Assembly: GCA_022562395.1 (NCBI GenBank)
Contig: JADFPI010000007.1
Location: 1 to 38,251 of the forward strand
DNA from: Patescibacteria group bacterium
GTDB taxonomy: Bacteria; Patescibacteriota; Microgenomatia; UBA8517
Direction of reading: 5' to 3'
Length of the DNA stretch: 38,251 bases
Every line of letters starts with the position of its first letter. The stretch's first letter is position 1. The translations under genes and the position numbers were made by a program. Below, one piece after another: positions 8,926 to 18,908 of the stretch. Under the pieces are notes generated by a model. The model was not told where the DNA came from. It searched no databases and saw only the letters and a program-made list of their open reading frames with translations.

Positions 8926-9753
8926 TCACATTCCAGTTTTTACATAAAACGCTACTAGGAACAATGCTGTTGCAATAAGTATTGCCCCAGACAGTTTCTT
9001 GATAGTTTCAGCTTTTCCTGCAACGGTTTGCAGTAATTTCTGCTTACCTGAAGCTAGAATAAGGGTTGCAATGGTAAGCATGGCTGAAAGTGCTAGGCCG
9101 TAAGCAATAAAGGCTGAGAAACCAACAACGAATTTACCTGAAATAATGGGAATTAAAGCAATCGTGAGTATCACCGGTAAAAAGCAGGCTGCACCCGCAA
9201 TAGCATAAATAATCCCATATCCAAAGGCTCCCCAGTTTTTGAATCTTACAGATAGCTTATTTATCCACTTATCAAGAAAACCTGTTGGTAGTTGCTTACC
9301 TGTAAGCAGTACAAAGCCAAAAACAAAAATAAGCGCAATTACTCCCAGCTTAAGATAATTAGCGTAAAAAGCAAGTTGAGTACCAAAAAAGGCAAGAATT
9401 GCTCCTAAAATCACATAAAAACTAATAATGCCAGCCGATGCAGTGCCTGCAAAGCGCAAGGCTTGTTTCTTGGGTGAACCTTTCCCCTCTTTGCTTGCCA
9501 AGAAAAAGGCGGCGTAAGCTGGAAAAACAGCAAAAGGACATGGTGCAAAAAATGATAAAACACCAGCAATAATTGCAAACCCTACAACGCCTGCTAGGGG
9601 TAGTGTCGCTGCTTTACTGGCTTGAGGAATAACATATCCGTAAAATCCTTGCCACCCCAGGATGTAAATGAGAACAATTATTGTGAGTATTGCTGCACCC
9701 CACAGCCATAACGAGACTTTGTTTACTTGTGTTGTTTTAGCTTTTGTATTCAT
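8926..9753 (-). CDS. CcdA/DsbD-like multi-TM protein
   Basis: VLSFFAPCPFAVFPAYAAFF and second Cys AACFLPVILTIALIPI in hydrophobic helices. Confidence 0.82.
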   Translation of the reverse strand: MNTKAKTTQVNKVSLWLWGAAILTIIVLIYILGWQGFYGYVIPQASKAATLPLAGVVGFAIIAGVLSFFAPCPFAVFPAYAAFFLASKEGKGSPKKQALRFAGTASAGIISFYVILGAILAFFGTQLAFYANYLKLGVIALIFVFGFVLLTGKQLPTGFLDKWINKLSVRFKNWGAFGYGIIYAIAGAACFLPVILTIALIPIISGKFVVGFSAFIAYGLALSAMLTIATLILASGKQKLLQTVAGKAETIKKLSGAILIATALFLVAFYVKTGM

Positions 9754-9792
9754 TGAGTTTGAGGTGATTCATTGATTAAGTTTTTTTACGAA

Positions 9793-10695
9793 TTAACCAC
9801 CGAAAGCTTTCGGTCCTATGAAAAGTATCCAAAAGGTGATAGAAAATGCACCCAAAATAATAAGGCCGACACCGCTAATAAGATGAACCATCTCCCGCTT
9901 GCTTGAAATCAAGGCAACCATGCGCTGTGGGCTAACTTTTACGCTTGCTAAAAGTCCAAAGGCCGCCAGTGGTAAAATTCTTCCCAAAGCCAGAACTCCG
10001 CCAAGAAGAGCTCCATAAAATGGATTGCCAACCAATGCTGTCCAAAGGAGAACAGCATGGTAGGTGGGAAATGGGCACCCTACGCCCAAGGCTCCACCCA
10101 ATGTTGCACCAACTGTAAAAGACTTTCTGTAACCGCTCATCTTAAGACTTGATTCTTGAGCTTTGTGAAAAAGACCACTCAATAGACCTCGTTGGCGGAT
10201 AAACCCGAACTCAGCTAAGCCAAAATAAAGCACAATAAATCCAACAAGAGAAAATACTATCACTGCCGTTTGCAAGGCCGACTCGCTGAATCCTTTGAGT
10301 AATGAAATAACCTGTCCTCCTAAAAGACCCACAATTCCACCAACTAAGGCACCGACAAGAATGAGGCCGAGTGAGTACCAAAAAAGATTAATGAGCCAAT
10401 TCGGCTTTTTTATATTCGCATCGCTTGCCTTTGTCTGAATTGTGGGTGCAAAAGTAAAGAGAATTGGTAAAAAGCAAGGGGTAACCACCATTGAGATACC
10501 TATTGCAAAAGCGATAACAAGTGCCGGTAACGCCCCGGGAATTCCTTCAACGGCCGTGCTTGTTGTACCGGAAAGGAAAACTTGTATTGTGGTTGGCAAT
10601 TCCTTCAAAAATGGCAGTTGACTGAAAATCAATGCCAACCCAATACCTACAAGGATTGAGGTAATTAAAATTATGAATTTAGCTTTTGTATTCAT
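9793..10695 (-). CDS. CcdA/DsbD-like multi-TM protein
   Basis: MVVTPCFLPILFTFAPTIQ and GVGCPFPTYHAVLLWTALVG. Start at MNTKAKF (10695) preferred to 10737. Confidence 0.8.
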   Translation of the reverse strand: MNTKAKFIILITSILVGIGLALIFSQLPFLKELPTTIQVFLSGTTSTAVEGIPGALPALVIAFAIGISMVVTPCFLPILFTFAPTIQTKASDANIKKPNWLINLFWYSLGLILVGALVGGIVGLLGGQVISLLKGFSESALQTAVIVFSLVGFIVLYFGLAEFGFIRQRGLLSGLFHKAQESSLKMSGYRKSFTVGATLGGALGVGCPFPTYHAVLLWTALVGNPFYGALLGGVLALGRILPLAAFGLLASVKVSPQRMVALISSKREMVHLISGVGLIILGAFSITFWILFIGPKAFGG

Positions 10696-10960
10696 TGAGT
10701 TTATTTCTAAGCTGAGACTCGCTAGCTCCACCAACAAAAGCCAACTTGCCGTTGATAATCACGCCCGGGCTTGACATAATTCCGTATTTCTGCACCAGCT
10801 TCATTCCCTCTTCTTCAATCATGGATATTTCTTGTACTTTCATATCTGGAAATTCAGGAGCAAGTTTTTCTAGTAAGTCCTTTACCTGGCCACAGTGACT
10901 ACAATGCTCGGTTTTAACCAATTGAACATCAATGCTTCGACCTTGCTCACCACTAGTCAT
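10679..10960 (-). CDS. Small thioredoxin/glutaredoxin-like protein (CSHC)
   Basis: VQLVKTEHCSHCGQVKDLLEKL...YGIMSSPGVIINGKLAFVGG. Confidence 0.85.
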   Translation of the reverse strand: MTSGEQGRSIDVQLVKTEHCSHCGQVKDLLEKLAPEFPDMKVQEISMIEEEGMKLVQKYGIMSSPGVIINGKLAFVGGASESQLRNKLNEYKS

Positions 10961-12062
10961 GTCCGCCCACCTCCCTTGCCCCGCCGAAGCTATCTAGCGA
11001 AGGCGGGTCGTCGGTATGTACATCGTCAATTCCGTGCTTATGCTCTGCTTCTATTGTTCCACTAATCGCAAGGATTATAAGCCCAAACAAAAATGCCACA
11101 ATAAGCAAAGCCTTTTTCCTAGAAACCATTTTCTTAGAAGTTGCCCAGAGAATAGAAATTCCCACTAGTCCTAAAAATAGTGTCCAGCCCGCCCAAAAGG
11201 GAGCTACAAAAAGCCCTTGTGCAACAGGATGGCCTGGGGCTTCAGCCAGTTGTGGGGCAATATTAAATATAAACTTGTTCCACGAAGCGTGGAAGACCGA
11301 ATCTTCCCACCAAGGCATGCCAAAAACTCCATAAGTTAAGATAAACGACCCCACAAAAACTAAAGCCCAGCCCATTAGTTTGTCGACAACCTGTTTTTTT
11401 GTTGTTAAAAATCCAGTCGCGTTTACCCCAAGAATTCCCAGAATTGCCAAAAAGATAAGGGGTGTGGCTCGTCCAAGGCCGTGAACAAATCCCAACAGCC
11501 AGCCTGTACCTATCTCGCCCACGGTGGCTATATAGCCAAGCAAAACGTAAAAGGCAGGGTTGGGACAACCTACTCCTGCGTTGCCCAAGAAAAGACCCAT
11601 GGTAAATACACGTAGATACTCTCCCTGACGCTGAATAAAAGAAGGAAGGGCCCCCGAAAATGAGGGGACTGTCCATTTAATAAGTCTTAATTCCGAAATT
11701 CCAAACAATAAAGCTGCAGTTCCTGCGATGGTGAACATTATCCGGGTTGCGCTATCCAATCCCAAATACTGCCCAATCACGGCCATAAATACACCGTAAA
11801 ACGAGAGCGTGATTGATACACCGAGGCCAAAAAGAACTGCCATTATAATGCCCTTTTTAGGTTTTTCACCCATTGTCAAGGGCACTATGATGAAAGCCAA
11901 AGGCAGAGTGCAAGGCAAAAAGATCATTGACAATCCCGCGGCGTAGGCAAGAGTCAGGCTTACCGTTTGGCCTGATTTGGTTAAGTAAAAGAGCCCCAGA
12001 AGGATAATTGAAAAAAGAACAAAGGCAATACTAACTAGACTGACTTTTTCTTTATTACTCAT
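10953..12062 (-). CDS. CcdA/DsbD-like multi-TM protein
   Basis: MIFLPCTLPLAFIIVPLTMG and GNAGVGCPNPAFYVLLGYI; start overlaps the ArsR gene stop. Confidence 0.82.
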   Translation of the reverse strand: MSNKEKVSLVSIAFVLFSIILLGLFYLTKSGQTVSLTLAYAAGLSMIFLPCTLPLAFIIVPLTMGEKPKKGIIMAVLFGLGVSITLSFYGVFMAVIGQYLGLDSATRIMFTIAGTAALLFGISELRLIKWTVPSFSGALPSFIQRQGEYLRVFTMGLFLGNAGVGCPNPAFYVLLGYIATVGEIGTGWLLGFVHGLGRATPLIFLAILGILGVNATGFLTTKKQVVDKLMGWALVFVGSFILTYGVFGMPWWEDSVFHASWNKFIFNIAPQLAEAPGHPVAQGLFVAPFWAGWTLFLGLVGISILWATSKKMVSRKKALLIVAFLFGLIILAISGTIEAEHKHGIDDVHTDDPPSLDSFGGAREVGGHD

Positions 12063-12363
12063 GGTCGTCCTCCTTACAATTAACGCAGTACGTATTTACA
12101 TGCCTATCCATTAGCGCCAGTAGAGGCTGAATAGTTTTCTTGTTAAGGGAATAAACCCGCTCTTTACCATTTTGCTTTACCTCAACAAAATGGCATTCGT
12201 GAAGCCTTTTTAGGTTGTGCGATACAAGAGTCTGCTCTAGTTTTACACCTTCAACGATATCTGTAACATTTTTTGCGCCGCGCTCTTGTAAGAAGTGAAT
12301 TATTTTCAATCTATTAACATTTGCTAACGTCCTGAAGAATCTCTTGTATGACTTATTCATCAT
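12055..12363 (-). CDS. ArsR-family transcriptional regulator
   Basis: FRTLANVNRLKIIHFLQERGAKNVTDIVEGVKLEQTLVSHNLKRLHECHFVEVKQNGKERVYSL; C-terminal CVNC. Confidence 0.92.
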   Translation of the reverse strand: MMNKSYKRFFRTLANVNRLKIIHFLQERGAKNVTDIVEGVKLEQTLVSHNLKRLHECHFVEVKQNGKERVYSLNKKTIQPLLALMDRHVNTYCVNCKEDDHE

Positions 12364-12371
12364 ATGAAGTA

Positions 12372-12400
12372 ATTATCATACCTTAATTGAAGTATGTCAA
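12372..12400 (-). promoter_or_regulatory. Promoter and operator dyad of the ArsR/mer operon
   Basis: TTGACA (12400-12395), 17-bp spacer, GATAAT (12377-12372); imperfect dyad CATACCTTAATTGAAGTATG (12377-12396, 8/10 pairs) between them. Confidence 0.7.
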
Positions 12401-12528: not shown

Positions 12529-13242
12529 CTAACTTGTGGGTGTTTTACCGTAAATAATAATTCTGGTTCCGGGATTATGGTTAGTTACTTTTATTGATTG
12601 GTGTCCTTCCAACCCCGGCGCTGCCCAGTAATATAGCTTTTTTGCATCAGGGGTTTTTAAGTTAACACAGCCGTGGCTCATCGGATGGCCAAAATTATTG
12701 TGCCAATAAGTACCGTGAATGGCGTAGCCCTTCCACCCAGGAATTTTATCGTTTGAGAAAAACATCACAAAGGGCACGTTGGGCAAATCATAATAAGTTC
12801 CCAAAGCCCTACTCCCCCCTCTCATTCTGGTGTAGCGCAATTTAATCCAAGGCCTAAATTCACCAGTCGGAGTTGCCCACCAGGGTTTACCGGTAGAGAT
12901 GACAAAATCAAAAACTTTTTTATCACCCTCATAGGCATACAGCCTCTGATTTGTCAGATCTACTTCTATTCGCTTTCCCCTTAATGTTGCTTCTCCCAAA
13001 ACATCTGTTTGTATCAGTGTACCTGGGGTGGCATTAGCCAAAGCGATTGATCGGCCTTCAAAAAAAGCAGTTGCCAAGCTGCTATCAAAATTGCCTGCAA
13101 CATCACTAAAATCAATATTGTGTTGGCCAGTTCTAAGAAAAAACCCTCCTCTAGTATTTGTTAATCCGGCAGCAACTAACACTATTAGTGCAGCCAGACC
13201 GACAACTATTTTCTTGTAAGGAACTCTTTTCTTTCTACTCAT
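12529..13242 (-). CDS. L,D-transpeptidase (YkuD domain)
   Basis: IEVDLTNQRLYAYEGDKKVFDFVISTGK..., IHGTYWHNNFGHPMSHGCVNLKTPDAKKLY; catalytic HG...SHGC motif. Confidence 0.93.
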   Translation of the reverse strand: MSRKKRVPYKKIVVGLAALIVLVAAGLTNTRGGFFLRTGQHNIDFSDVAGNFDSSLATAFFEGRSIALANATPGTLIQTDVLGEATLRGKRIEVDLTNQRLYAYEGDKKVFDFVISTGKPWWATPTGEFRPWIKLRYTRMRGGSRALGTYYDLPNVPFVMFFSNDKIPGWKGYAIHGTYWHNNFGHPMSHGCVNLKTPDAKKLYYWAAPGLEGHQSIKVTNHNPGTRIIIYGKTPTS

Positions 13243-13424
13243 TTCTTACCTTTCATCATTCGCCGGTGTAAGAAATAATTGCTCATGGCAACGGCACCCA
13301 TTACGAACATGCCAAAACCCATTATTGAATTGCCTCGACTAAACCAAATGAAAGCAAGTAAGAAAAGAGCGGCACTACCCAAAAAGATTATTAACATAGC
13401 AACTTGATGAAGTACCTCGGGCAT
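13239..13424 (-). CDS. Small two-TM membrane protein
   Basis: MPEVLHQVAMLIIFLGSAALFLLAFIWFSRGNSIMGFGMFVMGAVAMSNYFLHRRMMKGKK; overlaps the LDT start by 4 nt. Confidence 0.7.
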   Translation of the reverse strand: MPEVLHQVAMLIIFLGSAALFLLAFIWFSRGNSIMGFGMFVMGAVAMSNYFLHRRMMKGKK

Positions 13425-13457: not shown

Positions 13458-13495
13458 TACTACAGCTTGTAATAGTTACTTCAAATACTTGTCAA
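13458..13495 (-). promoter_or_regulatory. Putative BlaI operator/promoter upstream of the L,D-transpeptidase operon
   Basis: TACTACA-gct-TGTAATA at 13458-13474; TTGACA at 13495-13490, 18 nt from TACAAG. Confidence 0.6.
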
Positions 13496-14567
13496 AAAAC
13501 TCAACGGACCGAGCCATTGCCAGGCCAAAGGCAGCTCCGGACAAGTTATGATCTGCTCCATCATAAGTGTAAAGCTCTACAGATTTACCTTCTTTCTCTA
13601 AAGCCTTTTTAAAACCCTCGGAGAAGGATAAAGGTACATGAATATCTCCTGTTCCATGGTGTAGTTGAACGGGTGTGTCAATATCCTCTAGGTATGTATA
13701 TGGGTCAATAGACTTCCAAAAATCAAGATTTTCTTCGTATGTTCCAAACTCATCCAGGAAGTTTTGTCTGCTTGGACCTTGATGCCTGTGTTCAGCTGAA
13801 GCCACCTGCCAACGCCTGGCTCTTGACCAATTATTGAGAATGTCTTCGTATGATCCAACCACTCCTGCCCAGATTACGGCCGCTTTAATATCATCAGATA
13901 GGACCAAGTTTCTCATTGTAATGTTTCCACCCATCGAGTGTCCCCACATGCCAATTCGATCGGCATTAACGATCGACCCCGAGCTCCCGGTCGAAGGGCC
14001 TGTCGAAGGGTTTTTAAGACGTTTAATTGAAGCCAACGCGTTTAGAACATCTACCGCATATCCTGGTGAAAAATAGTTGCCAGTGGCAATCCCTTGCGAA
14101 TTACCGTGACCCCGGTAGTCAGATTTAAATACAACGTATCCTCTCTTTGCAAAACCATCTAAGTAAGCCTCATAACGCTGCGTGGTTACATATTGGCTTG
14201 GAGGAAGATAGCCGTGATTAAAGACGATTGCTGGCCAACCTCCTTTTGGTTGCTCACCGTTAGGAATTGTTAATAGGCCAAATATTTTCAAACCGTCTGA
14301 TTTATATGAAGCAATATATCTTTTATAGTTTGAGCTATCGGCCAGCCTTTGCTCTACTACAATATCACTCCCCGGATATTCCCTTTGCCTTAGTGACTCA
14401 ATTGCCAAGGTGGGTAACGACGCCTCCGGGCCGCCCTGACTAACTTGGAATAGATTACTTACTACTCGCTTTTCGTCTAATATCAGACCGCCTCGAAATA
14501 TATAAAACGCAATCAAACTAAAAACTAATACAGACACCCCAATAAGGGGCACATAAAACTTTCTCAT
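13476..14567 (-). CDS. Alpha/beta hydrolase (prolyl oligopeptidase/dienelactone hydrolase-like), membrane anchored
   Basis: VFNHGYLPP, YRGHGNSQG, RIGMWGHSMGGNITM, QLHHGTGDIHVP, YDGADHNLSG. Confidence 0.9.
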   Translation of the reverse strand: MRKFYVPLIGVSVLVFSLIAFYIFRGGLILDEKRVVSNLFQVSQGGPEASLPTLAIESLRQREYPGSDIVVEQRLADSSNYKRYIASYKSDGLKIFGLLTIPNGEQPKGGWPAIVFNHGYLPPSQYVTTQRYEAYLDGFAKRGYVVFKSDYRGHGNSQGIATGNYFSPGYAVDVLNALASIKRLKNPSTGPSTGSSGSIVNADRIGMWGHSMGGNITMRNLVLSDDIKAAVIWAGVVGSYEDILNNWSRARRWQVASAEHRHQGPSRQNFLDEFGTYEENLDFWKSIDPYTYLEDIDTPVQLHHGTGDIHVPLSFSEGFKKALEKEGKSVELYTYDGADHNLSGAAFGLAMARSVEFFDKYLK

Positions 14568-14572
14568 AGCTA

Positions 14573-15094
14573 TTACTCTCCTTTAATGAAGTTAACCAAA
14601 GCTTCTTTGTCCAAAGAGTCAAATGTTTCAATCTTTCTAAATTTTGTGATTGCTAACTTCTCGGTCATCCCGGGATAAGGTGCAACGTAGACAAACTTAG
14701 GATATTGATTGGCTATTTCGGAAAGCTGATCAATCAAATCGGGGTTGCAGTCAAAGTCCTCACAGTTGTAATTAATAATCACTCCAGGTGGCCCGCTTCC
14801 GTCGGCATGCTCGAGCATGTGTTTCTGGACTAGTATAGGCATTGGCTTGTCAAGTACATGAGAAGCCGGGCTTTGCTCAACGTGGCCAGCAAAATCGGTC
14901 GGGGGTAAAACGTCACCACTAGTTAACCAATAATATCCCCCTCCCCCAACAACGACCAATACAATCAAACCAATACCCCAATTGCGCAATTTTCCGGCAA
15001 AAGCTTGGTGTTTCTCTTTCTGCTTTTTAAGCCCTTTTATCCTTTTCTTGCGTTCTCGTTTTGGTAGGTTGTCCCAATCTTCTGGATACTCCAT
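14573..15094 (-). CDS. Membrane-anchored conserved protein (DUF3105-like)
   Basis: N-terminal basic region plus TM; HVLDKPMPILVQKHMLEHADGSGPPGVIINYNCEDFDCNPDLIDQLSEIANQYPKFVYVAPYPGM. Confidence 0.55.
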   Translation of the reverse strand: MEYPEDWDNLPKRERKKRIKGLKKQKEKHQAFAGKLRNWGIGLIVLVVVGGGGYYWLTSGDVLPPTDFAGHVEQSPASHVLDKPMPILVQKHMLEHADGSGPPGVIINYNCEDFDCNPDLIDQLSEIANQYPKFVYVAPYPGMTEKLAITKFRKIETFDSLDKEALVNFIKGE

Positions 15095-15099
15095 GAAAC

Positions 15100-15849
15100 T
15101 TAATTTACGGTTAAGCTTCCTATCATACCACGCTCCTTATGACCCGGCACAGCACAATAATATTCAAAAGTTCCTGACTTTGACGGTGTAAACTCAACCG
15201 TGACAGAACCCCCGCTAAGTGACTCATTCACTCCAAGTTCGTCTATCGTAAAGGTGTGTGTACCGCTGTTTGCAAAAGTTATTTTTACCGGCTGGCCCTC
15301 TTTTAAGGTCAGGGTCTTAGGACTAAAAGAAAAGTTGCTCGAGCTCATGCTAATCTCTTTTGCGCCTTGCTCTGCCGCCCCCTCACTTATACTAAATTTA
15401 CTCAAAACAACCACTCCAGAGTCATCCTTTAAGGGAGCGTCCTCTCCTGGAAATTCATAAACTCCGTCCCCGTCGTCTGAATGAAGCATCGCGTATAGAA
15501 CTTCTTCTTCTAGGGTCGACCTACTTAGACTGACTACGACGTCACTATTTCTTCCGCTTAGCAACTCACTGTTTCCAATAACCGGCCCAGGTTTTCCACC
15601 GCCGTCTTCGTGCACAACAACATAGCCAGAATCGACAAGTTCCACACTGGCAACGGTCACGCTTTCTCCTGGTCCTTGATCGTTCGCAGTTACACTATTC
15701 TCTGTTATAGCTACTTCAGTCGTTGTTTCAGGCGGTTGAGTCGTCACGGGAGCCTGGTATCCTCCGCGTAAAAGGAAATACCCACCCACGCCGACGACCA
15801 ACAAAACGATAACCACCCACACTGTTTTATTGCTCATATACTTTATCAC
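15100..15849 (-). CDS. Membrane-anchored protein with DUF7282-like region and C-terminal cupredoxin domain
   Basis: FSFSPKTLTLKEGQPVKITFANSGTHTFTIDEL...GTFEYYCAVPGHKERGMIGSLTV: type-1 copper His, Cys, His, Met ligands. Confidence 0.87.
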   Translation of the reverse strand: MIKYMSNKTVWVVIVLLVVGVGGYFLLRGGYQAPVTTQPPETTTEVAITENSVTANDQGPGESVTVASVELVDSGYVVVHEDGGGKPGPVIGNSELLSGRNSDVVVSLSRSTLEEEVLYAMLHSDDGDGVYEFPGEDAPLKDDSGVVVLSKFSISEGAAEQGAKEISMSSSNFSFSPKTLTLKEGQPVKITFANSGTHTFTIDELGVNESLSGGSVTVEFTPSKSGTFEYYCAVPGHKERGMIGSLTVN

Positions 15850-15861
15850 CTCCCTCCTCTA

Positions 15862-15957
15862 CTAACTTTCAACTAAAACATTAATTTTTTCTGGGTGACC
15901 ACTAGCACAACTTGTCGCCACCGAGCCTATCTGGGTTGCCGTGAACTGAAAAGATAC
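15862..15957 (-). pseudogene. Possible cupredoxin C-terminal remnant
   Basis: Frame VSFQFTATQIGSVATSCASGHPEKINVLVES* preceded by an in-frame TAG and with no start codon; resembles a cupredoxin tail. Confidence 0.35.
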
Positions 15958-16006
15958 CTAACAATAATTTTTGTCCCATAAACATCCCCTTTCTTTTGAG
16001 CTTCGC

Positions 16007-16747
16007 TTACTGCTTGAGTTCTAATACAAAAGCGGCACTTCCAAACTTCTGCAAAAGAAAAGACGAGATAACAGAAAATTTCCCGGTAAACAAAAGTACT
16101 CCAAATATAATCATAATAACCCCGGCTATCTTGTTAAGTAGCGGTGCATAGCTATTTAGTTTTTTAAACTTTGAAGAAAACTTGTCGAAACCTAACCCTA
16201 TTAAAATAAAGGGGAGCCCAAGTCCCAATGAAAAAAGTAGAAGTAGTGGTACTGCTTGAGCGAAGGTTGTTTGAAAACCCACCCAAAATAATATCGCCGC
16301 CAAAACAGGGCCAATACAAGGAGTCCAAGCAAAACCAAAGGTTGTTCCGAGTAAAAATGCCCCAGTAGAAGTTCCCGCATTCCCCTTAAGAGACACTTGA
16401 TAAGTTCTACTTAGGAATGGAATTTGGATGAACTTTCCAAGATAAAGACCGAAAAAGACAAGGAATGCTCCAGCAATGCGCTCCAGAGTGGTGCGATAAA
16501 TAGCCAAACTTCTTGCAAAAGTGTTAACTGTTAGACCAAGTATCAGAAATACCAAGATAAATCCGGAGGTGAAAAGAAGAGCATTTTTCGTAAAAGTCAT
16601 TTTCTGTTTTCCATCAAGTTTTCCTGAAGAGCTTCCTGCGAGGAAACTTACATAAACAGGAGCGATTGGGGCAAGACAGCCTGCAAAAAAGGTTATGAAG
16701 CCTGCAGCAAAGGCAAGAGCAAGGTTAAGAAGCGTTAAAGGAACCAT
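16007..16747 (-). CDS. CcdA-type cytochrome c biogenesis/thiol transport membrane protein
   Basis: ITFFAGCLAPIAPVYVSFLAG..., FGFAWTPCIGPVLAAILFWVG: CcdA Cys motifs. Confidence 0.92.
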   Translation of the reverse strand: MVPLTLLNLALAFAAGFITFFAGCLAPIAPVYVSFLAGSSSGKLDGKQKMTFTKNALLFTSGFILVFLILGLTVNTFARSLAIYRTTLERIAGAFLVFFGLYLGKFIQIPFLSRTYQVSLKGNAGTSTGAFLLGTTFGFAWTPCIGPVLAAILFWVGFQTTFAQAVPLLLLFSLGLGLPFILIGLGFDKFSSKFKKLNSYAPLLNKIAGVIMIIFGVLLFTGKFSVISSFLLQKFGSAAFVLELKQ

Positions 16748-16753
16748 TGGTCA

Positions 16754-17539
16754 TTAGCTTTTAGCGAGCATTGCATCGATTGCTTGCTTAAGTTGTGGGT
16801 ATGGAACTGCTCCGGGAATTAGTTGACTATCCCCTGTTTTAGTATCAAGAAGAATGTTCCCGGGTGTCCCAGTTACGCCCGCTTTAGTTCCCGATTGAAA
16901 GTCGTCACTCACCTTCTGTGCCATTTCTCCAGAGTCTAAACAAGTTTGAAACGCGGATTTGTCAATCCCTACTCCAGCGGCTAAGTCAGGAAGTGTATCC
17001 ATATCAAGTCCGTTATTAGAGGGTGTCACTTCAAATATTTTGTCGGTCAGTGCCCAGAAGCCGTCATTACCCGCAAGCTTTCCTGCACACTCTACAGCCT
17101 CTGCTTGCTTGGGAGCCTTTGAATGTAATTGTTCGAGAGGAAAATGTCTGTATACCCACATCACGTCATCAGGATATTCATCAACGGCTTGTTGAGCCGT
17201 AGGATGAAATCTCTGGCAAAATGGGCACTCTAAATCCGAATACTCAATTAATGCGATACGAGCGTTTCTGTTTCCCTTGACATAGTCACTATCTGTAACC
17301 GGGTCAACTTCTCCTGCCGTTTGTGCTGCTGGCGGTGCCGCCTGAGAATTCCCACCGGTAGCACTGGTAGTACCCGTCACCCTAGTACCTCCACTCTCAA
17401 GATTTTGCACCTTTTGCCAAAGAGTCCCTACAAGAAACGCCAGGCCGATTGACCCGATGAGAAGTATCGGGGTTAAACTTCTTATTGAAGGGATAGTAAT
17501 TGTAACAGTTTTCCTTTTTTTGTTCTTCTCCTCCGCCAT
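16754..17539 (-). CDS. Membrane-anchored DsbA-family thiol oxidoreductase (paralog of 2671-3483)
   Basis: YSDLECPFCQRFHPTAQQAVDEY...GVTGTPGNILL. Start MAEEKNKKRKTV (17539), not 17596, because promoter elements lie between. Confidence 0.9.
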   Translation of the reverse strand: MAEEKNKKRKTVTITIPSIRSLTPILLIGSIGLAFLVGTLWQKVQNLESGGTRVTGTTSATGGNSQAAPPAAQTAGEVDPVTDSDYVKGNRNARIALIEYSDLECPFCQRFHPTAQQAVDEYPDDVMWVYRHFPLEQLHSKAPKQAEAVECAGKLAGNDGFWALTDKIFEVTPSNNGLDMDTLPDLAAGVGIDKSAFQTCLDSGEMAQKVSDDFQSGTKAGVTGTPGNILLDTKTGDSQLIPGAVPYPQLKQAIDAMLAKS

Positions 17540-17541
17540 GT

Positions 17542-17580
17542 TTACTACAGAGTGTAGTAATTTATTTACCTTCCTGTCAA
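17542..17580 (-). promoter_or_regulatory. Putative BlaI operator/promoter upstream of dsbA
   Basis: Perfect dyad TTACTACA-gag-TGTAGTAA (17542-17560); TTGACA (17580-17575) 18 nt from TACACT. Confidence 0.7.
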
Positions 17581-18500
17581 TAGGTAACGTTAACAAAAGA
17601 CATCGATGTCTGGCTACTCATATTCTCTTCCAAGCAGTCAGTTGAGCACTGATTATTATTACAGCTTTCTTCAGTAATACCACCTTTATTCTCTACTGCG
17701 TGACTTTGTATTGGAAAAAGAAAAAGTGCCAGGCCCACAAAAACTACCAAAGAAGAGATGACAACACTTGATTTTTTCACCTGGTGATTATTCCTTTTCG
17801 AAAAAGAAGGATAGAGTGAGAATTTATCTTGAGAAGTTATTTTTCTCAAAGCCAGGTTAAGATACCTACTGCTTCTTTGTTTATCCACGGTAAATTTGTC
17901 TGATTCTTCCTCTAACACAATCCTCATTTTCTTGGTTAAATCTTTCAAAAGTGGAACAAAAAACAAAGAGGATGATAAAACCTCTCCTATAATAAGCAGT
18001 AAGGGGTGCCTGTTTTTGGAGTGATAAGACTCGTGCAGGACAACCGCTTCAAGCTCGCGGTAGGTCAATTTCTTGATTAAACCTGAAGAAATGATAATCT
18101 TCGTGTTTGATAAATTGGCAGTAAAAGCTAAATCCTTCTTTGAATCAATGATTATCACACTGTCTTTTTGAATAAAGTTTTTAGCAAGAATTCTTTCAAG
18201 TTCAGAGGGTAAAACAAAAACTCTTCTTTTGAGAAGTTTTTTGAGCTTATTTCTAGTTTTGATATGAGAAAAAATGGCTTTTGAAAAAAATATCAGAATT
18301 ACGAGTGCGGCTATCAGGCTAAGCAAAAGCCCAGTATAGTGAGCCCCTGAAGACAACAAAGTTGAAGCGGCTTGCCGGCAGACTTCAAGAAAATGTCCCA
18401 AGGTCAAATATAAGTATTTCCTCAAAAGCATAAAAATACTCAAGATTGAAGCAGAAAAGATTATTGATATTGGAGCAAAATATCTAAGTTCTACTCTCAT
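17577..18500 (-). CDS. BlaR1-like M56 membrane metallopeptidase with short Cys/Met-containing extracytoplasmic tail
   Basis: LEAVVLHESYHSKNRHPLLL (HExxH) with N-terminal TMs; ends TM + EESCNNNQCSTDCLEENMSSQTSM; no penicillin-binding domain. Confidence 0.82.
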   Translation of the reverse strand: MRVELRYFAPISIIFSASILSIFMLLRKYLYLTLGHFLEVCRQAASTLLSSGAHYTGLLLSLIAALVILIFFSKAIFSHIKTRNKLKKLLKRRVFVLPSELERILAKNFIQKDSVIIIDSKKDLAFTANLSNTKIIISSGLIKKLTYRELEAVVLHESYHSKNRHPLLLIIGEVLSSSLFFVPLLKDLTKKMRIVLEEESDKFTVDKQRSSRYLNLALRKITSQDKFSLYPSFSKRNNHQVKKSSVVISSLVVFVGLALFLFPIQSHAVENKGGITEESCNNNQCSTDCLEENMSSQTSMSFVNVTY

Positions 18501-18868
18501 TTGGATTTCCTAAACCAGAAGGAAATCTTTCTCCTTCTTTTGGCAGAAATTTTACCAACTTCATCATTAAAAGCAGTAATAGCTTCTTCCCCAAACTGCT
18601 CCACTAATAAGTTTAATGCGCGCCCAACAATAGCCCTTGCAGCTTGCTTCTTGGTCTTTTTTGGAGAATAAACATATGCCCTGCCCTTCCTTTTTCTCTC
18701 TAGATAGCCTTTTTTGGTAAGCCTTGTCATTATTGTCATAACAGTTGTATAGGCAATTTTGCGCTCACGTCGCAAGCACTTGCAAACCTCTCTAACCGAA
18801 ACATTTCTCTCGCCCCACAAACAAGCCATCACTTCTTGCTCCAAAGGACCTAGCGAAAAACTTACCAT
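18497..18868 (-). CDS. BlaI/MecI/CopY-family transcriptional repressor
   Basis: LGPLEQEVMACLWGERNVSVREVCKCLRRERKIAYTTVMTIMTRLTKKGYLERKRKGRAYVYSP: canonical BlaI wHTH. Confidence 0.95.
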   Translation of the reverse strand: MVSFSLGPLEQEVMACLWGERNVSVREVCKCLRRERKIAYTTVMTIMTRLTKKGYLERKRKGRAYVYSPKKTKKQAARAIVGRALNLLVEQFGEEAITAFNDEVGKISAKRRRKISFWFRKSK

Positions 18869-18869
18869 A

Positions 18870-18908
18870 TACTACAGATTGTAGGAGTATTAAGGTATTT
18901 AAGCAATA
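18870..18908 (-). promoter_or_regulatory. Putative BlaI autoregulatory operator/promoter
   Basis: TACTACA-gat-TGTAGGA (18870-18886), 1 nt from the start codon; TTGCTT-N17-TACAAT promoter with -10 inside the operator. Confidence 0.65.

What the first reader, a model, noticed from the sequence alone, without database searches (positions are those of the whole stretch)
13458..18908. Local BlaI regulon linking a BlaI/BlaR1 pair to DsbA-CcdA-cupredoxin genes and an L,D-transpeptidase operon, with no beta-lactamase in view
Three sites share one architecture: TACTACA-gat-TGTAGGA at blaI (18870-18886), TTACTACA-gag-TGTAGTAA at dsbA (17542-17560, perfect dyad) and TACTACA-gct-TGTAATA upstream of the 61-aa/L,D-transpeptidase operon (13458-13474). 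At each, the -10 (TACAAT, TACACT, TACAAG) lies inside the dyad and a -35 (TTGCTT, TTGACA, TTGACA) lies 17-18 nt away. BlaI/MecI/CopY repressors are known to bind TACA/TGTA dyads. Inference: this repressor controls envelope disulfide chemistry and 3-3 peptidoglycan crosslinking instead of, or besides, a beta-lactamase.
Basis: partly seen in the sequence, partly recalled or inferred. Interest (0 to 1): 0.78.

Follow-up and report, generated by a model that had tools for sequence, protein, structure and literature searches.

The report
Repressor–protease switch for envelope disulfide genes
In a group of tiny, mostly uncultured bacteria, a repressor–protease pair known elsewhere from penicillin resistance sits with, and very probably controls, disulfide-bond and copper-handling envelope genes, and its penicillin sensor is replaced by a short cysteine-bearing tail.

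Summary
Three TACTACA-N3-TGTAGTA dyads lie at the stated places; they are the only ones with at most one mismatch in the 0.92-Mb genome, and each overlaps the -10 of a sigma-70-like promoter. The arrangement is conserved. In Microgenomates-type Patescibacteria a BlaI–M56 pair is usually followed by the same dyad and then dsbA, often with TTGACA 17–18 bp upstream. A search of 384 genomes for that promoter–operator composite, made without reference to BlaI, gave 33 hits and none for the reversed pattern. Of 30 loci examined, 24 had BlaI or M56 within 1.5 kb and 16 led into dsbA; others led into copper-type genes. The L,D-transpeptidase link is weaker: its promoter carries the composite, and two Daviesbacteria place ykuD between M56 and dsbA. 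One correction: the 'BlaR1' has the zinc protease but no penicillin-binding sensor. It ends in a short tail with a near-invariant cysteine, and an invariant cysteine sits in the outer loop. The most likely mechanism is a BlaR1-type switch that senses envelope thiol redox state or copper, not beta-lactams. Repression is strongly supported by sequence; the signal is inferred; nothing was tested at the bench. New variant of a known kind.

The parts
18497..18868 (-). blaI: BlaI/MecI/CopY-family repressor, 123 aa
   Evidence: PF03965 E 2.2e-25; best solved relatives 2g9w and S. aureus BlaI/MecI; invariant F100 aligns with BlaI F102, the P1' residue of BlaR1 cleavage (PMC9834060)
18870..18886 (-). 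Operator 1 (TCCTACAATCTGTAGTA in gene sense), overlapping -10 TACAAT of blaI-M56
   Evidence: 24 of 78 oriented patescibacterial sites stand in front of blaI
17577..18500 (-). M56 (BlaR1-type) membrane zinc protease, 307 aa, HESYH at 156-160, third ligand E197, no penicillin sensor; invariant C41 in the loop between the first two TM helices and Cys tail C280/C285/C289 after the last TM
   Evidence: PF05569 E 6.1e-9; aligns to BlaR1 8exp only through the last TM; AlphaFold model pLDDT 83 matches 8exq E 2.5e-7; invariant columns; tail
17543..17559 (-). Operator 2 (TACTACACTCTGTAGTA), overlapping -10 TACACT of the dsbA operon; -35 TTGACA at 17580-17575
   Evidence: conserved between M56 and dsbA in relatives
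16754..17539 (-). dsbA: membrane-anchored DsbA-like thioredoxin (CPFC)
   Evidence: PF13462 E 6e-17, PF01323 E 6.9e-15
16007..16747 (-). ccdA: DsbD_TM/CcdA-type electron carrier
   Evidence: PF02683 E 1.3e-13
15100..15849 (-). DUF7282 + cupredoxin protein
   Evidence: PF23951 E 1.1e-21, PF13473 E 8.3e-13
14573..15094 (-). DUF3105 membrane protein, recurrent in the module
   Evidence: PF11303 E 1.3e-5; homologs next to dsbA in relatives
13476..14567 (-). alpha/beta hydrolase, last gene of the presumed dsbA operon
   Evidence: PF00326 E 4e-14
13458..13474 (-). Operator 3 (TATTACAAGCTGTAGTA), overlapping -10 TACAAG; -35 TTGACA at 13495-13490
13239..13424 (-). 61-aa small membrane protein, first gene of the ykuD operon
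   Evidence: ORF; no family match
12529..13242 (-). YkuD L,D-transpeptidase, the only one found in the genome
   Evidence: PF03734 E 6.1e-24; genome search found one copy

Best explanation
This is a BlaI-M56 repressor-protease switch for envelope thiol (and in relatives copper) chemistry. BlaI dimers bind 17-bp TACTACA-N3-TGTAGTA operators that contain the -10 hexamer of three sigma-70-like promoters, blocking RNA polymerase at blaI-M56, at dsbA-ccdA-cupredoxin-DUF3105-hydrolase, and at the 61-aa/ykuD pair. The M56 membrane zinc protease is the sensor. Instead of a penicillin-binding domain it exposes on the outer face a cysteine in its extracellular loop (C41) and cysteines in a short C-terminal tail (C280, C285, C289). 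A change in their state (reduction or oxidation, or binding of a thiophilic metal such as copper) is proposed to activate the cytoplasmic protease, which cuts BlaI before a conserved phenylalanine (A99|F100) and so induces DsbA, its electron partner and the L,D-transpeptidase. Shown here by sequence and statistics: operators, promoter overlap, conservation, protease motif, absence of the sensor domain, conserved cysteines. Inferred: binding, cleavage, outer location of the loop and tail, and the nature of the signal.
For: Only three <=1-mismatch sites in the genome, all in this 5.4-kb stretch. Among 97 related genomes (own included), 13 of 14 with BlaI have such a site versus 12 of 83 without (p 1.4e-8), and 26 of 30 sites in BlaI genomes lie near BlaI (about 0.06 expected). 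BlaI-M56-site-dsbA recurs in many genomes. Patescibacterial loci around BlaI: 80 sites in 586 kb, 0 for the reversed pattern. TTGACA (>=5/6) at 16-19 bp on the gene strand in 43/78 sites, 0/78 on the other strand. De novo composite search in 384 genomes: 33 hits, 0 controls; 24 of 30 loci near BlaI/M56; dsbA downstream in 16. M56 aligns to BlaR1 only up to the last TM and keeps H156, E157, H160 and E197 with the same 41-residue spacing as BlaR1 H201-E242 (PMC9834060). C41 invariant in 35 of 35 and C280 in 32 of 35. Tail with at least 2 Cys in 33 of 40 patescibacterial M56 and 0 of 44 others. Genes behind the operators in relatives are DsbA/thioredoxin-like proteins, heavy-metal P1B ATPases, multicopper oxidase and HMA-DsbD-cupredoxin proteins.
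Against: No binding, expression or cleavage data. The tail is predicted disordered (pLDDT about 42), so no C41-C280 contact is shown. Tail length and Cys spacing vary, and some members keep only one tail Cys. In non-patescibacterial short M56 a loop Cys and a C-terminal Cys also co-occur (29 both, 11 neither, 3 tail only, 0 loop only); this argues for function but means the cysteines are not unique to this regulon, and the comparison is not phylogenetically corrected. The ykuD link rests on one genome's site plus two syntenic genomes.
Confidence: 0.72

Rival explanations
1. Copper-specific switch: the M56 tail binds copper and the regulon is a cop system that has recruited DsbA, CcdA and cupredoxin for repair of copper-damaged disulfides (compare Scs systems).
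For: In several relatives the same operator fronts P1B ATPases with HMBD/HMA domains, multicopper oxidase or HMA-DsbD-cupredoxin proteins; the window operon has a cupredoxin; NCBIfam's best, sub-threshold hit for BlaI is CopY_TcrY; DsbA-like ScsC proteins act in copper tolerance (PMC5524982, PMC8900818).
Against: The most constant target is DsbA or another thioredoxin-fold protein (dsbA in 16 of 30 composite loci), with copper genes in a minority; BlaI lacks the CopY C-terminal CXC motifs; the Magasanikbacteria genes tested were GILT/thioredoxin-like or unassigned, none copper-type.
Confidence: 0.35
2. Beta-lactam or cell-wall stress sensor: a reduced BlaR1 controls YkuD so that 3-3 cross-links bypass penicillin-binding proteins.
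For: BlaI/BlaR1 homology; the only YkuD of the genome is under operator 3; YkuD sits between M56 and dsbA in two Daviesbacteria.
Against: No room for a penicillin-binding sensor domain in any of the 35 aligned M56 proteins; the genome's class A beta-lactamase-fold gene has no operator; the core target is DsbA, not a wall enzyme.
Confidence: 0.08
3. BlaI binds the dyads, but the M56 protein acts on other signals or substrates and the regulon is essentially autoregulated.
For: No experimental data; one locus (L119) has BlaI and sites but no M56 detected next to it.
Against: The protease site and BlaI F100 are invariant in the aligned sets; M56 directly follows BlaI in nearly all loci.
Confidence: 0.1
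4. Chance palindromes in AT-rich DNA.
For: With 3 mismatches allowed, 7 of 100 shuffles of the window reach 3 matches.
Against: At <=1 mismatch the genome has only these three, and conservation, the strand-specific -35 and the composite search exclude chance.
Confidence: 0.01

Closest known systems
Staphylococcal BlaI-BlaR1 / MecI-MecR1 beta-lactam switch
   Same: Winged-helix BlaI repressor with TACA/TGTA dyad; membrane gluzincin M56 with HExxH...E; conserved Phe at the known scissile site; adjacent repressor and protease genes with an operator at their own promoter.
   Different: No penicillin-binding sensor; tail of about 20-90 aa with cysteines; dyad half-sites 3 nt apart; targets are dsbA/copper-type genes and ykuD, not a beta-lactamase or PBP.
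CopY/CopR copper repressors
   Same: Same repressor superfamily; operator RNYKACANNTGTMRNY shares TACA/TGTA (PMC7253601); copper genes occur behind the operator in relatives.
   Different: CopY senses metal itself through C-terminal CXC motifs (PMC7253601), absent here; CopY operator has a 2-nt spacer; here a protease partner is present.
Mycobacterium tuberculosis BlaI (Rv1846c)
   Same: Closest solved relative appears to be this protein (2g9w, listed as conserved hypothetical protein; identity with Rv1846c from memory); a BlaI whose regulon extends beyond beta-lactamase, for example ATP synthase genes (PMC7924339, PMC12565901).
   Different: Targets and lineage differ; the mycobacterial operator was not compared directly here.
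Scs / DsbA-like copper tolerance proteins (ScsC)
   Same: Link between thiol-disulfide enzymes and copper tolerance (PMC5524982, PMC8900818, abstracts only).
   Different: Described in Proteobacteria; no BlaI-M56 control in the abstracts read.

Membership tests
BlaI/MecI/CopY repressors (PF03965) | Penicillinase_R winged-helix domain | tested here: met
   E 2.2e-25, 89.7 bits vs cut-off 22.6; PDB hits to BlaI/MecI
BlaI/MecI/CopY repressors (PF03965) | TACA/TGTA dyad operator at promoters including its own | tested here: met
   Three sites incl. own promoter; conserved in relatives; spacer 3 nt instead of the 2 nt of the CopY consensus (PMC7253601). Binding itself not tested.
CopY copper repressors | C-terminal CXC metal-binding motifs | tested here: not met
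   No CXC near the C-terminus of the window BlaI; TIGR02698 55 bits, below its cut-off of 122
BlaR1/MecR1 beta-lactam sensors | M56 zinc protease with HExxH...E | tested here: met
   H156, E157, H160, E197 invariant in 35 sequences; structural match to 8exq
BlaR1/MecR1 beta-lactam sensors | C-terminal penicillin-binding sensor domain | tested here: not met
   Protein ends 43 residues after the last TM; PDB alignment stops at the last TM
BlaR1/MecR1 beta-lactam sensors | Cleavage of BlaI on signal | not testable with these tools
   Only the conserved F100 at the position of the S. aureus N101|F102 site (PMC9834060)
bla/mec resistance operon | Adjacent, operator-controlled beta-lactamase or PBP2a | tested here: not met
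   None in the regulon; class A-like gene on contig 31 has no dyad at <=2 mismatches
cop (copper export) operon | Operator-controlled copper P1B ATPase | tested here: not met
   Not behind the three promoters of this genome; present behind operators in relatives such as L049, L052, L058, L139
DsbA (thioredoxin-fold oxidoreductases) | DSBA/Thioredoxin_4 domain with CxxC | tested here: met
   PF13462 and PF01323; CPFC in the sequence

The most novel reading that the evidence does not exclude
A one-step envelope redox sensor: a BlaR1-type membrane protease whose outer-loop cysteine (C41) and tail cysteine (C280) form or break a disulfide, or share a copper ion, according to the DsbA/copper status outside the membrane, and which then destroys the repressor of dsbA itself. 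This would be a direct feedback loop on disulfide formation, in a lineage for which my searches found no such regulator described.
Probability: 0.4. Interest if true: 0.78.

Novelty: new variant of a known kind. Interest (0 to 1): 0.62.

Why it matters
BlaI-BlaR1 is the textbook beta-lactam switch, and annotation pipelines label its relatives accordingly. Here the same repressor-protease core is attached to a different sensor and a different regulon in Patescibacteria, where transcriptional control is little studied. It gives a short, precise promoter-operator signature (TTGACA-N17/18-TACANNNTGTAGTA) with which the regulon can be read from sequence alone, and it makes a specific question testable: can a short cysteine tail replace a whole ligand-binding domain in a membrane-protease signalling system? 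It also warns that BlaI/BlaR1 annotations in such genomes need not mean antibiotic resistance.

Tried and rejected
Chance palindromes: rejected. Beta-lactam sensing by the M56 protein: disfavoured, no sensor domain. CopY identity: rejected, no CXC and below the NCBIfam cut-off. A scan with the broad M56 alignment failed for lack of conserved stretches and BlaI was used instead. Structure of the u173/u179 membrane proteins: AlphaFold confidence too low (mean pLDDT 69.9), so no fold search was made. An operator for the neighbouring ArsR gene: only a weak 70% palindrome at its start. Literature searches for a redox- or copper-sensing BlaI-M56 pair, or for BlaI in Patescibacteria, found nothing on point; the library lacks most subscription journals, so absence is weak evidence. 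Phage collection: only two distant BlaI-like hits, so no sign that the module is phage-borne.
Full report
Observation. In the 922,835-bp genome only these three sites match TACTACANNNTGTAGTA with at most one mismatch, and all three lie within 5.4 kb. In gene sense the half-site TACA plus the first spacer bases forms the -10 (TACAAT, TACACT, TACAAG). The dsbA and 61-aa promoters have exact TTGACA boxes 18 bp upstream; the blaI promoter has the weaker TTGCTT at 17 bp.

Genes. All run on the minus strand: blaI, an M56 protease, dsbA, a DsbD_TM/CcdA protein, a DUF7282-cupredoxin protein, a DUF3105 protein and an alpha/beta hydrolase; then a 61-aa membrane protein and a YkuD L,D-transpeptidase. YkuD is the only member of its family found in the genome. 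A second BlaI-type gene lies on contig 52. A class A beta-lactamase-fold gene (SLNK, SDN, KFG motifs) lies on contig 31 with no dyad at up to two mismatches.

Relatives. Of 97 genomes (own included) 14 have a BlaI hit; 13 of these have a dyad with at most one mismatch, against 12 of 83 without BlaI, and 26 of the 30 dyads in BlaI genomes lie near BlaI against 0.06 expected. Across loci of Woese-, Roizman-, Davies-, Levy-, Collier-, Gottesman-, WWE3- and Magasanikbacteria the order blaI-M56-dyad-dsbA (or another, often thioredoxin-like, gene) recurs; the loci hold 80 dyads in 586 kb and none of the reversed control pattern. These counts contain close relatives and are not fully independent.

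Promoter logic. When 78 dyads are turned toward the gene they precede, TTGACA with at least five matches stands at 16-19 bp (nearly always 17 or 18) in 43, and in none on the other strand; the middle spacer base is T in 62, completing TACANT as the -10. A composite pattern that does not mention BlaI, TTGACA-N17/18-TACANNNTGTAGTA, searched in 384 genomes of the class, gave 33 hits and no control hits; of 30 loci examined, 24 have BlaI or M56 within 1.5 kb, 16 lead into dsbA and 4 into HMA-DsbD-cupredoxin genes. Two of this genome's three promoters (dsbA and 61-aa/ykuD) are among the hits. A repressor sitting on the -10 would block RNA polymerase directly (inference).

The sensor. The M56 protein matches BlaR1 in sequence up to the last transmembrane helix and in predicted structure, with zinc ligands H156, H160 and E197 spaced as in BlaR1 (PMC9834060). 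It then ends after about 43 residues. Among 35 patescibacterial M56 proteins the invariant residues are C41, H156, E157, H160, P183, E197 and D201, and C280 is present in 32. C41 falls in the loop that I take as the equivalent of EL1, which in BlaR1 reaches the sensor domain (PMC9834060); C280 is the first cysteine of the tail. Tails with two or more cysteines occur in 33 of 40 patescibacterial M56 and in none of 44 others. In the other short M56 proteins a loop cysteine and a terminal cysteine still co-occur (29 both, 11 neither, 3 tail only). Many tails follow a signal-peptidase-like A-x-A motif (by eye); BlaR1 itself is cut by signal peptidase near this place (PMC9834060). The model does not resolve the tail.

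The effector. BlaI residue F100 is invariant in the alignment and aligns with F102 of S. aureus BlaI, the residue after the scissile bond (PMC9834060), so cleavage by M56 is plausible but not shown.

The regulon. DsbA or another thioredoxin-fold protein is the commonest target besides blaI itself. P1B ATPases with HMBD or HMA domains, multicopper oxidase and HMA-DsbD-cupredoxin proteins follow the same operators in several relatives.

Interpretation. The sequence evidence for a BlaI regulon at dsbA and at blaI-M56 is strong, for ykuD moderate. The beta-lactam framing fails on the missing sensor domain. The conserved cysteines together with a thiol/copper regulon make envelope redox state or copper the likely signal; which of the two cannot be told from sequence. 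Literature searches found no description of such a pair, within an open-access library only.

Noticed in passing
window 8926-12363 (-): Next to the regulon lies a second thiol/metal cluster: ArsR-type repressor (12055-12363), a DsbD_TM protein (10953-12062), a CxxC thioredoxin-like protein (10679-10960) and two further multi-TM proteins. Only a weak palindrome (12346-12381) at the arsR start was seen.
   Followed up: partly
L047:4900-5421, L058:8915-9454 and 11 others: A family of about 175-aa multi-TM proteins with invariant CxxC plus a third Cys stands in the place of CcdA after dsbA in many relatives; the members scanned match no Pfam or NCBIfam family. Candidate membrane partner of DsbA.
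   Followed up: partly
window 17543-17559 and 18870-18886; many relatives: The dyads end only a few bases before the start codon (window: 3 nt at dsbA, 1 nt at blaI), so transcripts should be nearly leaderless.
   Followed up: partly
G000:C31:33014-33616 (L061): Class A beta-lactamase-fold protein with SLNK and SDN motifs but KFG in place of KTG; true activity unknown.
   Followed up: no
G000:C52 (L055:5229-5960); also L054:4007-4777: A second BlaI-type DNA-binding domain fused to a hydrophobic C-terminal half, with no dyad nearby and no M56 neighbour detected.
   Followed up: no
L092, L118, L131 and other Bacillota loci: Short M56 proteins end in a terminal Cys after the last TM and are followed by FtrD-like genes (PF10080) and what look like MacB-type ABC genes: possibly another cysteine-sensing branch.
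   Followed up: partly
L115, L116 (Magasanikbacteria): The gene after the M56-proximal dyad is a GILT/thioredoxin-like protein, and the M56 loop and tail carry extra cysteines.
   Followed up: no
window 13502-13519 (-): A terminator-like hairpin whose T-run merges with the TTGACA of the ykuD-operon promoter, inside the end of the hydrolase gene.
   Followed up: no
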